From: Winogradskyella eckloniae
GTDB lineage: Bacteria; Bacteroidota; Bacteroidia; Flavobacteriales; Flavobacteriaceae
Length of the DNA stretch: 64,000 bases
Direction: 5' to 3'
NCBI RefSeq assembly: GCF_013249045.1
Contig: NZ_JABRWP010000010.1
Location: 62,001 to 126,000, forward strand
The translations under genes and the position numbers were made by a program. The notes below the pieces were generated by a model. The model did no database searches and had not been told where the DNA came from. It was given only the letters and a program-made list of their open reading frames with translations. Each line of letters opens with the position of its first letter. Within the stretch, counting starts at the first letter, position 1. Positions 37,622 through 55,646 of the stretch are shown here, piece after piece.

Positions 37622-37691
37622 AAATCCTATTTTTAGGTTAGAGTCGTTGAAAAAAAATAAGATTGCAAATTTGCTAGAGAAGTTCTAAACT

Positions 37692-37768
37692 TTACTGCTT
37701 TAGCATTTTTTGTTTCAGTTGAATTTTTCAACGTCAGAGGTTGCAATCAGATCAAATTTTTCCTCTAA
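37692..37768 (-). promoter_or_regulatory. SAM-II-like riboswitch in the metK leader
   Basis: On the minus strand AGAGG (37766-37762) pairs with CCTCT (37740-37736) to form P1. Its loop holds TTTGATCTGATTGCAA. After a small inserted hairpin (GTTGAA-AAA-TTCAAC, 37732-37718) comes AAATGCTAAAGCAG (37708-37695), whose CAG pairs with the loop CTG as the pseudoknot P2. The order P1, UUGCAA, UGCUAAA and pseudoknot closely follows the SAM-II class known from alpha-proteobacteria and Bacteroidota. The motif begins about 150 nt and ends about 70 nt before the metK start. The rest of the 374-bp gap on this side holds only promoter-like boxes. Confidence 0.75.
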
Positions 37769-37783
37769 AATGTTTTGATACCA

Positions 37784-51383: not shown

Positions 51384-51534
51384 ATAAGAAGAATTTTATT
51401 CAAAAATAGGTAAATCAGAATATTGAACCTCTTTTTTTATTAAATCTTTAAAACTTTAGGAAAAATTATAAAAAATCATTTCTACAATTTTGATTTGTAA
51501 AAATAATAATTACATTAGCTGTATAATTACAACA

Positions 51535-51585
51535 ATGAACATTTCTAAAGCATATTATAACTGGTTTTATTTCTTTTTTAGCTAA
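51535..51585 (+). CDS. Phe/Tyr/Trp-rich leader peptide of the pheA attenuator
   Basis: ATG at 51535 opens a 16-codon frame reading MNISKAYYNWFYFFFS, then TAA. Eight of the 16 residues are aromatic (Y7, Y8, W10, F11, Y12, F13-F15). It lies 135 bases before pheA and directly before the antiterminator and terminator hairpins. Such a peptide is the classic sensor of an amino-acid attenuator: scarce charged tRNA-Phe or Tyr stalls the ribosome on these codons. The AT-rich upstream region gives no strong ribosome site. Confidence 0.75.
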   Translation: MNISKAYYNWFYFFFS

Positions 51586-51660
51586 AGGAACGAGACTGAA
51601 TATGTATTATTTAAATATAAATTATAAAGTCTCGATTTAATCGGGACTTTTTTTTGTGCA
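51586..51660 (+). promoter_or_regulatory. Transcription attenuator of the Phe/Tyr operon
   Basis: CGAGACT (51591-51597) can pair with AGTCTCG (51628-51634) as an antiterminator. That same strand also forms the terminator stem, AGTCTCGAT (51628-51636) with ATCGGGACT (51640-51648), loop TTA, nine pairs including one G-U, then eight T residues. The CGAGACT strand starts five bases after the leader stop codon. A ribosome finishing the peptide would cover it, allowing termination; one stalled on Phe/Tyr codons would leave it free, allowing readthrough into pheA. The rest of the 337-bp gap, between gldA and the leader, shows no other gene. Confidence 0.8.
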
Positions 51661-51720: not shown

Positions 51721-52548
51721 TTGAAAAAGCCAATTGCAATACAAGGCATAAAAGGATCATTTCACCATGAAGTGGTTCAGAATTATTTTAATGTAGATTC
51801 TGAAGTTGTAGAATGTATGTCATTTGATAGCGTAGTGAATGCGTTATTAGAAAAGAAAACCGATGAGGTAGTTATGGCATTAGAAAATTCTATAGCAGGT
51901 TCAATTATTCCTAATTATGCACTTATTGATAGTTATAATTTAAGCATTGTCGGTGAATATTATTTGGGTATAGAACATTGTTTAATGGCCTTAGGAGGTC
52001 AAACTATTGAAGACATAAAAGAAGTGCATTCTCACCCAATGGCATTACTACAGTGTAAGTCTTTTTTTAGAGCTTATCCGCATTTAAAATTAGTAGAAGC
52101 AAAAGACACAGCAGATGTGGCTAAACAAATTGCTGAGCAACAAATAAAAGGCATTGCTGCCATAGCTAGTAAAAATGCGGCGGCCTTATATGGCATTAAT
52201 TTATTAGCAGAAAGTATACAAACCATAAAACATAACGAGACAAGGTTTGTAATTGTAAAACGCAACGACCTACAAAAAGATAAAAGTGTAATAAATAAGG
52301 CATCATTAAAATTTGAATTAGATCACAAAAGAGGAAGTTTAGCGGCTATATTAAATGTATTAAGTGATTGCAGACTGAATCTAACAAAAATACAATCCTT
52401 ACCAAAAATAGAAACACCTTGGAAATATGCTTTTTTCGTAGATGTCACTTTTGATACGTATAAGGATTACGAAAAAGCCATTGCTATATTGAGTTTAATG
52501 GCAGAGAATTTTAAAATTCTGGGAGAATATAAAAACGCAAGACGATGA
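51721..52548 (+). CDS. pheA: Prephenate dehydratase
   Basis: The 275-aa enzyme converts prephenate to phenylpyruvate for phenylalanine. The N-terminal dehydratase part has IQGIKGSFHHEV, VMALENSIAGSI and VKRNDL-type ending; the conserved TRF appears as NETRFVIV. The C-terminal part (about 190-270) is an ACT domain (FELDHKRGSLAAILNVLSD) that senses phenylalanine. The first possible start is the TTG at 51721, since an in-frame TAA lies at 51715. It has no chorismate mutase domain; that activity is at the end of the operon. The aminotransferase start overlaps its stop (ATGA). Confidence 0.92.
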   Translation: MKKPIAIQGIKGSFHHEVVQNYFNVDSEVVECMSFDSVVNALLEKKTDEVVMALENSIAGSIIPNYALIDSYNLSIVGEYYLGIEHCLMALGGQTIEDIKEVHSHPMALLQCKSFFRAYPHLKLVEAKDTADVAKQIAEQQIKGIAAIASKNAAALYGINLLAESIQTIKHNETRFVIVKRNDLQKDKSVINKASLKFELDHKRGSLAAILNVLSDCRLNLTKIQSLPKIETPWKYAFFVDVTFDTYKDYEKAIAILSLMAENFKILGEYKNARR

Positions 52549-53687
52549 TAGAAGTAGCAAAACGTTTACAAAACGTTGAAGAATATTACTTTTCTAAAAA
52601 ACTAAGGGAAGTTGCGCTTTTAAAAGCACAAGGAAAACCGATTATTAATCTAGGTATTGGGAGTCCAGATTTAGAACCTCCTTTTAAAGCCTCTATGGTA
52701 TTACAAGATAGTTTGGCAGATGAAAAAGCACACCAGTATCAAAGTTACCAAGGGTTACCAGAACTAAGAGAAGAAATAGCAAACTTTTATTGCAGACAAT
52801 ATAATGTTCATCTAAGTGCGCAAACTGAGGTACTGCCATTAATGGGTAGCAAAGAAGGTATTATGCATATTTCTATGGCTTTTTTAAATAAAGGCGATAA
52901 AGTTTTAGTACCAAATCCTGGGTATCCAACCTATTCTTCTGTCACTAAATTATTAGAAGCAAAACCAATTTATTACGACTTAAAGGAAGCTAACAATTGG
53001 CAGCCAGATTTTAGTGCCTTGGAGCGTTTAGATTTAAAACGTGTAAAGATTATGTGGATTAACTATCCACACATGCCAACGGGTAGCAAAGCGGATAATA
53101 AGTTTTATGATAAAATAATTGCTTTTGGAAAACGACACGATATATTAATTGTAAACGACAATCCATATAGCTTTATATTAAATAACAACCCAATTAGTAT
53201 TCTAAGATATCAAGATGCAAAAGAAGTTTGTTTAGAGCTCAATTCATTGAGTAAAACGTTTAATATGGCTGGTTGGCGTGTAGGCATGTTGGCTGGTAGT
53301 TACGATTTTGTAAGTGCTGTATTGCGTGTAAAGAGCAACATGGATTCTGGGATGTTTTATGGCATTCAAAAAGGTGCGATAGAAGCCTTGAAATGTTCAG
53401 ATATGTGGTTTCAAAGTTTAAACAGTGTTTACCACACCAGAAGAGAATTAATTTGGGAATTAGCAGATAGTCTTAATTGTACCTATGACAAAGAAGCTGC
53501 AGGTTTATTTGTTTGGGCAAAGTTACCACCACATATAAAATCTGAAGAATTTACAGACATGGTCCTAAAAGAGCATTCCATATTTATGACGCCAGGAACT
53601 GTGTTTGGTAGTAATGGCGAAGGCTATGTGCGTTTTTCATTATGTGCCACAGAAGAAATAATTAAAGAAGCAATTGCAAGAGTTTAG
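52545..53687 (+). CDS. Class I/II PLP-dependent aminotransferase of the aromatic pathway
   Basis: The 380-aa protein is an aspartate-aminotransferase-like enzyme with LGIGSPDLEPPFKASM, the VNDNPYSFIL segment bearing the PLP Asp/Tyr, the Schiff-base lysine in SLSKTFNMAGWRVG, and VRFSLCATEEII near the end. Placed between prephenate dehydratase and prephenate dehydrogenase, it most likely transaminates phenylpyruvate and 4-hydroxyphenylpyruvate to Phe and Tyr. It overlaps the pheA stop by four bases and ends five bases before tyrA. Confidence 0.88.
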   Translation: MIEVAKRLQNVEEYYFSKKLREVALLKAQGKPIINLGIGSPDLEPPFKASMVLQDSLADEKAHQYQSYQGLPELREEIANFYCRQYNVHLSAQTEVLPLMGSKEGIMHISMAFLNKGDKVLVPNPGYPTYSSVTKLLEAKPIYYDLKEANNWQPDFSALERLDLKRVKIMWINYPHMPTGSKADNKFYDKIIAFGKRHDILIVNDNPYSFILNNNPISILRYQDAKEVCLELNSLSKTFNMAGWRVGMLAGSYDFVSAVLRVKSNMDSGMFYGIQKGAIEALKCSDMWFQSLNSVYHTRRELIWELADSLNCTYDKEAAGLFVWAKLPPHIKSEEFTDMVLKEHSIFMTPGTVFGSNGEGYVRFSLCATEEIIKEAIARV

Positions 53688-54563: not shown

Positions 54564-55646
54564 ATGGAAAACAAAAAAGAAATGAGAACATGGTTAGATG
54601 ATATGAAATTAGATCATCCTCTAGTCATAGCAGGACCATGTAGTGCAGAAACCGAAGAGCAAGTCTTAAAAATTGCTCACGAGCTAAAAGATACAGATGT
54701 TAGTTATTACAGAGCTGGTATTTGGAAACCAAGAACACGACCTGGAAATTTTGAAGGTGTTGGAGCGCTTGGGTTAAAATGGCTACAAAAGGTTAAGGCA
54801 GAAACTGGTATGAAAACCTGTACAGAGGTTGCAAATGCTAATCACGTAAAATTGGCTTTAGAGCATGATATCGATTTGTTATGGATTGGCGCTCGTTCAA
54901 CTGTAAGTCCTTTTATTATGCAAGAAATTGCGGATGCCTTACAAGGCACAGATAAAATTGTACTTGTTAAAAATCCGGTAAATCCAGATTTAGCGTTATG
55001 GTTAGGAGGTATAGAACGATTATATACAGCAGGTATAAAAAACTTAGGAGCAATACATAGAGGGTTTTCTACTTACGAGAAATCTAAATACAGAAATATC
55101 CCAGAATGGCAATTGGCTATTGAATTTCAAAATAAATTTCCAGACTTACCATTAATAAACGATCCGTCGCATATTACAGGTAATAGAGATATGATTTTTG
55201 ATGTCTCTCAAACAGCACTAGATCTTAATTTTGATGGATTAATGATTGAAACTCACTTTGATCCTGAAAACGCGTGGAGTGATGCGGCTCAGCAAGTAAC
55301 GCCAAGTAGTTTGGTTCAGATAATGAACGATTTAAAAATTAGAAAAGAAACAGATCCTGAAGCTGAGTATAATTCTGAATTAAATAATTTAAGAGCTCAG
55401 ATTGATGTAGTAGATAACCAAGTTTTAGATTTACTTGGTAAGCGAATGAAAGTTGCTGAGGGTATAGGCGCTCTTAAAAAGCAAAAGAATGTTGCCGTGT
55501 TACAAAGTAAACGTTGGAACGAGATTTTAGGTAAAATGGTGTTAGAAGGTGAAGAAAGAGGATTGAGCGAAGAATTTATTTTACGCATGTTTAAAGCTGT
55601 GCATCAAGAATCTATTAATCGTCAAGAAAAGATTATAAACGGCTAA
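54564..55646 (+). CDS. Bifunctional DAHP synthase (type I-beta) / chorismate mutase
   Basis: The 360-aa protein has an N-terminal DAHP synthase (about 1-265) that joins phosphoenolpyruvate and erythrose-4-phosphate. Motifs are VIAGPCSAETEEQ, YRAGIWKPRTRPGNFEGVG, the substrate/metal region IGARSTVSPF and LVKNPVNPD, and DPSHITGNRD. The C-terminal 90 residues are an AroQ chorismate mutase (LNNLRAQIDVVDNQVLDLLGKRM). It is the last gene of the Phe/Tyr operon, so both ends of the pathway from central carbon to prephenate are controlled by the attenuator. A strong terminator follows. Confidence 0.93.
   Translation: MENKKEMRTWLDDMKLDHPLVIAGPCSAETEEQVLKIAHELKDTDVSYYRAGIWKPRTRPGNFEGVGALGLKWLQKVKAETGMKTCTEVANANHVKLALEHDIDLLWIGARSTVSPFIMQEIADALQGTDKIVLVKNPVNPDLALWLGGIERLYTAGIKNLGAIHRGFSTYEKSKYRNIPEWQLAIEFQNKFPDLPLINDPSHITGNRDMIFDVSQTALDLNFDGLMIETHFDPENAWSDAAQQVTPSSLVQIMNDLKIRKETDPEAEYNSELNNLRAQIDVVDNQVLDLLGKRMKVAEGIGALKKQKNVAVLQSKRWNEILGKMVLEGEERGLSEEFILRMFKAVHQESINRQEKIING

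What the first reader, a model, noticed from the sequence alone, without database searches (positions are those of the whole stretch)
51535..51660. Peptide-leader attenuator controlling the whole Phe/Tyr branch in a flavobacterium
Seen: a 16-codon frame (51535-51585) with eight aromatic residues; then CGAGACT (51591-51597), which can pair with AGTCTCG (51628-51634); and that same strand forms a nine-pair terminator with eight T residues (51628-51655). The geometry fits ribosome-coupled attenuation exactly, because the antiterminator strand begins five bases after the stop codon. Known: peptide-leader attenuation of pheA is classic in Enterobacteria. Inference: this flavobacterium uses the same logic, without a Shine-Dalgarno site, to control pheA, the aminotransferase, tyrA and DAHP synthase-chorismate mutase together. 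The peptide also has one Trp and three Tyr, so it may read all three aromatic tRNAs.
Basis: partly seen in the sequence, partly recalled or inferred. Interest (0 to 1): 0.78.

Follow-up and report, generated by a model that had tools for sequence, protein, structure and literature searches.

The report
Aromatic leader-peptide attenuator before pheA
A flavobacterium seems to switch its phenylalanine/tyrosine genes on or off by how fast a ribosome reads a tiny aromatic-rich peptide; nearly all related genera that were checked carry the same switch, and in some relatives that have lost the phenylalanine and tyrosine genes the peptide reads tryptophan instead.

Summary
It is a classic ribosome-mediated transcription attenuator: leader MNISKAYYNWFYFFFS (51535-51585), then three mutually exclusive stems. 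Of 80 titled relatives, 78 have the whole element and two are cut by contig ends. In one-per-genus sampling of the family 78 of 80 genera examined have an aromatic leader, as do 16 of 24 class members outside it. Own strands pair far better than strands swapped between genera.

A Flavobacterium psychrophilum transcriptome paper (PMC9723704) already notes a conserved 5' element before pheA and clues for leader-peptide attenuation. So this is a new, well-supported member of a known kind.

The fresh result is retuning. In 14 testable pheA-less relatives the leader before aroF (DAHP synthase) has tandem Trp codons in six and one Trp in a seventh; seven show no leader. Five of the six, and the one-Trp case, are the window's own locus without pheA-aminotransferase-tyrA. 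Two pheA-less genomes have a Tyr-run leader before an aromatic amino acid hydroxylase. No expression data were available.

The parts
51490..51518 (+). promoter-like element of Bacteroidota type: TTG (51490-51492), 18 nt, TACATTAG (51511-51518; cf. TAnnTTTG)
   Evidence: TAnnTT[TA]G within 60 nt of the leader ATG in 71 of 77 family genera and 78 of 79 rows of the titled set (window included), against 0.108 and 0.09 in shuffles; the promoter consensus itself is recalled
51535..51585 (+). leader ORF MNISKAYYNWFYFFFS, no Shine-Dalgarno
51546..51576 (+). strand 1 of the protector, inside the leader codons: 51546-51555 and 51564-51576
   Evidence: RNAalifold; 93.8% of cells paired, 0 of 500 shuffles as high; swap test
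51584..51609 (+). strand 2: pairs with strand 1 (51584-51596, 51600-51609) or, by CGAGACT 51591-51597, with strand 3
51628..51634 (+). strand 3 core AGTCTCG: antiterminator (with strand 2) or terminator (with strand 4)
   Evidence: 98.1% of cells paired; swap test
51626..51655 (+). intrinsic terminator: 11-pair stem 51626-51650 and U8 tract 51648-51655
   Evidence: 99.5% of cells paired
51721..52548 (+). pheA, prephenate dehydratase (TTG start)
   Evidence: Pfam PF00800 6.5e-57
52545..53687 (+). class I/II aminotransferase
   Evidence: PF00155
53693..54544 (+). tyrA, prephenate dehydrogenase
   Evidence: NF006307 above its cut-off
54564..55646 (+). aroF-type DAHP synthase fused to chorismate mutase
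   Evidence: PF00793 and PF01817
50490..51383 (-). gldA, divergent neighbour; the + strand terminator therefore cannot be its 3' end
   Evidence: TIGR03522 above its cut-off

Best explanation
A ribosome-mediated transcription attenuator controls pheA-aminotransferase-tyrA-aroF. Transcription starts shortly before a leader ORF rich in Phe and Tyr codons with one Trp codon. With enough charged aromatic tRNA the ribosome runs to the stop codon, masks strand 2 and leaves strands 3 and 4 free to form the terminator. When charged aromatic tRNA is short, the ribosome stalls in the run, which is strand 1 of the protector; strand 2 is freed, pairs with strand 3, the terminator cannot form and the operon is read. 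Without translation the 1:2 stem holds strand 2 and the terminator forms. Shown by sequence: the ORF, the three alternative stems, their conservation and genus-by-genus fit, the promoter motif, the gene order. Inferred: transcript start, stalling, termination, read-through, and which tRNAs matter (Phe and/or Tyr almost surely, Trp possibly).
For: Titled relatives: 78 of 80 have the whole element; L046 (cut) still shows the run and stems, L037 (cut) only strands 2-4. On 79 rows, cells paired: protector 93.8%, antiterminator 98.1%, terminator 99.5%. Family: 77 of 80 genera within 800 nt, 78 of 80 with G128, whose leader lies about 1.05 kb upstream. Chance control: at least 6 of 8 aromatics in 74 of 80 regions forward and 1 of 80 on the reverse strand; at least 5 of 8 in 77 and 7. 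Strand 2 against strand 3, own versus swapped between genera: 9.10 versus 7.45, sd 0.13, 200 permutations. Protector duplex: -18.45 versus -13.0 kcal/mol, sd 0.36, 1000 permutations. Outside the family: 16 of 24, swap test 0 of 500 as high, n = 15. Order and identity of the aromatics vary between genera, as expected for codon rather than peptide sensing. Codon identity follows the pathway in several pheA-less genomes. A covariance model has one strong site in the own genome, 132.4 bits, next 37.5, and a match at E <= 0.001 in 115 of 149 family genomes.
Against: No transcript, reporter or starvation data. The 2:3 stem shows no double changes within the close set, so its support comes from the cross-genus swap test. 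In the slid control of the protector some shifts have more pairs with a change on both sides (8 at -1, 7 at +3, 10 at +2, against 6), though far fewer cells pair (47.6-66.5%) and fewer cells change on both sides (8-44 against 66). None of the swap tests corrects for kinship. 25 of 77 genera have no Trp codon. Two of 80 genera with pheA show no leader: L102, where pheA lies far from aroF, and L119, where only 376 nt upstream are held. Eight of 24 class members outside the family show none.
Confidence: 0.93

Rival explanations
1. Nascent-peptide arrest: the aromatic peptide itself, perhaps with a free amino acid bound, stalls the ribosome (TnaC-like), rather than shortage of charged tRNA.
For: Within close relatives the peptide is nearly fixed (TYYNWFYFFFS and the like).
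Against: The near-fixity is explained by the codons being strand 1; between genera order and identity of the aromatics change, and leaders with Trp or Tyr codons stand before aroF or a hydroxylase in pheA-less genomes.
Confidence: 0.04
2. Trp is kept in the leader only because UGG pairs in or beside the protector, not to sense tRNA-Trp; the switch responds to Phe (and perhaps Tyr) only. (This rival concerns the range of sensing; it is compatible with attenuation as such.)
For: The last G of UGG lies in strand 1 here. In C. glutamicum a Phe-Tyr-Phe leader responds to Phe and not Tyr (PMC11802643, passage). Sensitivity falls with the fraction of control codons (PMC1183508, passages) and Trp is one of eight. 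The genome has its own WWW leader before trpE.
Against: Trp recurs at different places of the run in different genera and is enriched about 4-fold, like Tyr (background from one window, no correction for kinship). Tandem Trp stands before aroF where the Phe/Tyr genes are gone.
Confidence: 0.45
3. A plain promoter-terminator unit: constitutive premature termination without translation-dependent control.
For: Terminator and promoter motif exist.
Against: Does not explain the aromatic frame in 78 of 80 genera or the alternative stems and their fit. No Rfam riboswitch or T-box matches here at gathering score.
Confidence: 0.02

Closest known systems
pheL-pheA attenuator of E. coli
   Same: Leader ORF with control codons before pheA and transcription attenuation answering to charged tRNA-Phe (PMC11802643, passage; stem details recalled)
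   Different: Here no Shine-Dalgarno; Tyr and often Trp codons beside Phe; a four-gene branch including DAHP synthase; no match to any Rfam family at gathering score
5' element upstream of pheA in Flavobacterium psychrophilum (PMC9723704; passages and one section read)
   Same: Same gene, same family; the paper reports clues for leader-peptide attenuation before amino-acid operons, and conservation of the pheA and hisG elements in other genera, without Rfam hits
   Different: The section gives no peptide, stems or covariation, and its supplement could not be read here; that it is this element is inferred
aroR leader before aroF in Corynebacterium glutamicum (PMC11802643 and PMC4046766, passages)
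   Same: Aromatic leader controlling DAHP synthase
   Different: Phe-Tyr-Phe; other phylum; reported to respond to Phe and not Tyr
Classic trp and his attenuators
   Same: Same logic; this genome also has WWW (before a trpE-like gene) and HHHFH (before hisG) leaders, each followed by a hairpin and T tract
   Different: Amino acid sensed

Membership tests
ribosome-mediated (classic) transcription attenuator | short leader ORF with clustered codons for the operon's end products | tested here: met
ribosome-mediated (classic) transcription attenuator | mutually exclusive 1:2, 2:3 and 3:4 stems, 3:4 an intrinsic terminator | tested here: met
   by sequence and comparison only:
ribosome-mediated (classic) transcription attenuator | downstream genes make the amino acid(s) of the control codons | tested here: met
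ribosome-mediated (classic) transcription attenuator | leader lies on the operon's transcript | tested here: inconclusive
   promoter motif before the leader; no transcript data
ribosome-mediated (classic) transcription attenuator | read-through depends on ribosome stalling at control codons | not testable with these tools
   needs expression experiments
any Rfam 15 family, the enterobacterial Phe leader (name recalled) included | covariance-model match at gathering score | tested here: not met
   only SAM-II elsewhere in the window
T-box or known riboswitch | match to a known model at gathering score | tested here: not met

The most novel reading that the evidence does not exclude
Across Bacteroidia one promoter-leader-terminator cassette acts as a rewritable sensor of aromatic end products. 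The Phe/Tyr, often +Trp, leader reads the state of all aromatic tRNAs for the branch that holds DAHP synthase. When the Phe/Tyr genes are lost from the same locus, the control codons are swapped to tandem Trp, so that DAHP synthase follows the amino acid still made from it. In other pheA-less lineages a Tyr-run leader of the same build sits on an aromatic amino acid hydroxylase that would make Tyr from Phe.
Probability: 0.55. Interest if true: 0.68.

Novelty: new member of a known kind. Interest (0 to 1): 0.55.

Why it matters
In the papers seen here, leader-peptide attenuation in Bacteroidota rests on one paragraph about F. psychrophilum (PMC9723704) and a remark on B. thetaiotaomicron (PMC7366714, passage); a 2010 survey knew none outside Proteobacteria and Actinobacteria before its own Firmicutes case (PMC2965389, passage). 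Conservation over a family and into its class implies that in these bacteria ribosomes follow RNA polymerase closely enough, without Shine-Dalgarno sites, for attenuation to work (inference). The Trp and Tyr leaders are natural codon-swap experiments: they predict what each leader senses and can be tested with reporters.

Tried and rejected
Rfam scan: no match at this place. The first leader search, limited to 420 nt, missed L070, whose leader lies 646 nt upstream. The 800-nt limit missed G128, whose leader lies about 1.05 kb upstream behind repeats. The first scan of the pheA-less genomes, for Phe/Tyr/Trp density, showed nothing at 6 of 8 or more before aroF; a covariance-model hit at G033 and then a terminator-anchored search showed the Trp leaders. 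That first scan did list frames at 5 of 8; one, MRKISYFLYIWFQFTVRI in G041 (257 nt before aroF, no terminator found within 600 nt), may be a decayed leader. Other second hits of the model that I fetched (L222, L223, L224, L226) showed no aromatic, Trp or other clustered leader; many further weak second hits were not looked at, nor did I count how many of its hits lie next to pheA. G048's second strong hit lies at a contig end and is probably an overlap with its own pheA contig (inference). G062 is probably not truly pheA-less: a tyrA fragment lies beside aroF at its contig end, so it is left out of the 14; G116 has no sequence upstream of aroF. In front of ilvD of the own genome I saw no convincing leader. 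In the class set no reverse-strand control was run, and the hairpin found for L186 is doubtful. Literature: nine searches; in the listings, and in the passages of eight papers that I opened, I saw none describing this leader peptide, a Trp leader before aroF or a Tyr leader before a hydroxylase in Bacteroidota. The library holds open-licence papers only and supplements could not be read. A tree test of Trp gains and losses was not run.

Full report
What is there. Upstream, gldA runs the other way, so the + strand terminator at 51626-51655 cannot serve it. Downstream, pheA (TTG start), an aminotransferase, tyrA and a DAHP synthase-chorismate mutase fusion follow with overlaps or gaps of at most about 20 nt. 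The leader MNISKAYYNWFYFFFS is the only one of 912 short ATG frames in the window with 7 aromatics in a stretch of 8.

Anatomy. The leader codons 51546-51555 and 51564-51576 pair with 51600-51609 and 51584-51596. Strand 2 is therefore held by strand 1 (the aromatic codons), or by strand 3 (CGAGACT/AGTCTCG), or is left single when strand 3 pairs with strand 4. Paired cells: 93.8% (1:2), 98.1% (2:3), 99.5% (3:4). The 1:2 stem has 66 cells with changes on both sides against 32.5 in shuffles; in the slid controls 8-44 cells, though some slides have more pairs touched (up to 10 against 6). The 2:3 stem shows no double changes in this close set. The 1:2 stem offers a reason why the peptide is nearly fixed among near relatives: the codons are also a structural strand.

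Spread. Of the 80 loci of the genome scan, 78 have the whole element; two are cut by contig ends, L046 showing the run and the stems and L037 only strands 2-4. In all 80 the order is pheA-aminotransferase-tyrA-aroF, and in 77 gldA lies divergently upstream. One genome per genus of the family: 130 of 149 have pheA (the same 130 by Pfam PF00800). I fetched the upstream of 80 of these 130, the 63 most divergent and 17 others. An aromatic leader (at least 5 of 8) is present in 77 of 80 within 800 nt, and G128 has it further out, so 78 of 80; on the reverse strand 7 of 80 reach 5 of 8 and 1 of 80 reaches 6, against 77 and 74 forward. Of the 77, 76 have aroF within 4 kb of pheA on the same contig and one lies at a contig end (my comparison by eye). 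In the class, 27 of 99 genomes gave a pheA match. Of the 24 outside the family, 16 have a leader with at least 5 of 8 aromatics, 15 of these with a detected hairpin and T tract (that of L186 doubtful); eight have none.

Pairing specificity. Strand 2 fits its own strand 3 better than those of other genera: 9.10 against 7.45, sd 0.13, highest of 200 permutations 7.84. The leader run and what follows it pair at -18.45 kcal/mol on average, against -13.0 when halves are swapped (sd 0.36, best of 1000 permutations -14.17) and -10.96 with the second half shuffled. Outside the family 0 of 500 swaps reach the own value, n = 15. These tests need no alignment, but they do not correct for kinship.

Start and promoter. 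Only 1 of 77 leaders has a Shine-Dalgarno-like motif in the 12 nt before the ATG; A stands at -3 in 73%. TAnnTT[TA]G lies within 60 nt of the ATG in 71 of 77 genera against 11% in shuffles, ending 16-19 nt before it in 50 of the 71. With the recalled Bacteroidota promoter consensus this puts the transcript start roughly 10 nt before the ATG (inference).

Stop codon. In 65 of 77 genera the frame runs through strand 2 and stops after it; in 8 the stop overlaps strand 2 and in 4 it precedes it, as in the window. A ribosome at the stop should mask strand 2 in either layout (footprint recalled; not computed genus by genus), so the mechanism need not change, but 'five bases after the stop' is a local feature.

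Which amino acids. Leaders of the 77 genera hold 25.9% Phe, 14.5% Tyr and 3.1% Trp against 4.92, 4.04 and 0.76% in 51 window ORFs: enrichments of about 5, 3.6 and 4 fold. 52 of 77 have Trp, 12.0 expected. His is not enriched (0.4% against 1.62%). Trp occurs at several positions of the run. This suggests, but does not prove, Trp sensing. The Corynebacterium aroR case (response to Phe, not Tyr; PMC11802643, passage) warns that a codon in the run need not be sensed.

Retuning. Of 149 genomes 19 lack pheA by both searches, and none of the 19 has tyrA above cut-off (G089 and G079 have weak matches below it). Some of the 19 are incomplete assemblies. 16 have aroF. G116 has no upstream sequence and G062 is probably an assembly break, leaving 14. 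Within 600 nt before aroF, 7 of 14 have a terminator with a short ORF in front; six of these carry tandem Trp (for example MYNTSLYWWHPYKL, MTTRSNFWWHHITN, MTNNNTWWSNSKFYLKR) and one (G101) a single Trp. These seven genomes are 99-100% complete. None of the 14 has a Phe/Tyr-type run of at least 6 of 8 aromatics before aroF; G041 has a weak frame of 5 of 8 without a terminator. Of 1139 short ORFs scanned around such loci 8 contain WW, and 7 of these are frames of the leaders themselves. In six of the seven the locus is the window's own, gldA divergent, then leader, aroF, rsgA, dtd, with pheA-aminotransferase-tyrA gone from it; G033 has another setting. Five of these six have WW and one a single Trp. 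The shared setting suggests one origin for those and a separate one for G033; I did not test this on a tree. The other 7 of 14 show no leader before aroF. Two of them, G042 and G089 (82% complete), have a Tyr-run leader with terminator (MKNLNNTYYYYPILTRRIGQ; MKTNRIYTIYMYTFYHRWRAR) before a short protein of the phenylalanine hydroxylase family (PF00351). Three pheA-bearing genomes with the short form show none, and of 18 long forms looked at 17 show none, the one hit being frames of ordinary composition about 0.6 kb upstream; distances there are from the domain match, not the gene start. Two Tyr cases are few.

Own genome. The leader model has one strong site (132.4 bits; next 37.5). A trpE-like gene and hisG have their own leaders, MKINTNHIWWWNFSNAC and MTTIQFHHHFHTSNQAR, each followed by a hairpin and T tract. 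So this bacterium seems to use the mechanism repeatedly.

Prior knowledge. PMC9723704 (passages and one section) reports in F. psychrophilum clues for leader-peptide attenuation before amino-acid operons and a pheA element conserved in other genera without Rfam hits. PMC7366714 (passages) notes possible leader peptides in B. thetaiotaomicron. The kind is therefore known and its presence in flavobacteria was already suspected; anatomy, pairing tests, spread and codon rewriting are what this work adds, as far as the nine paper searches show.

Verdict. Ordinary in mechanism, strongly supported by comparison, and more interesting for its evolution than for its novelty.

Noticed in passing
window 37690-37771 (-): SAM-II riboswitch, 54.7 bits.
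   Followed up: no
L192 (own genome, upstream of G000:C26:1060-2397): Trp leader MKINTNHIWWWNFSNAC and a hairpin with T tract before a trpE-like gene.
   Followed up: partly
L191 (own genome, upstream of G000:C24:210114-210653): His leader MTTIQFHHHFHTSNQAR and a hairpin with T tract before hisG.
   Followed up: partly
L221 (G003:C4:25571-25715, minus): Leader MNKNLNIMCRCMMCINYAGDTIV with a terminator-like hairpin before a gene resembling O-acetylhomoserine sulfhydrylase (named by eye): a possible Met/Cys leader.
   Followed up: no
L229 and L231: Tyr-run leaders with terminators before short PF00351 hydroxylases in two pheA-less genomes.
   Followed up: partly
L197, L198, L202, L205, L206, L207: Tandem-Trp leaders with terminators before aroF in pheA-less genomes.
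   Followed up: yes
G012, G039, G063, G090: Genera in which pheA is followed directly by aroF and tyrA is not found; their leaders keep Tyr codons.
   Followed up: no
L070 upstream of pheA; L134 and L214: Repeats between leader and pheA push the leader 0.65-1.05 kb away; whether the switch still works there is open.
   Followed up: no
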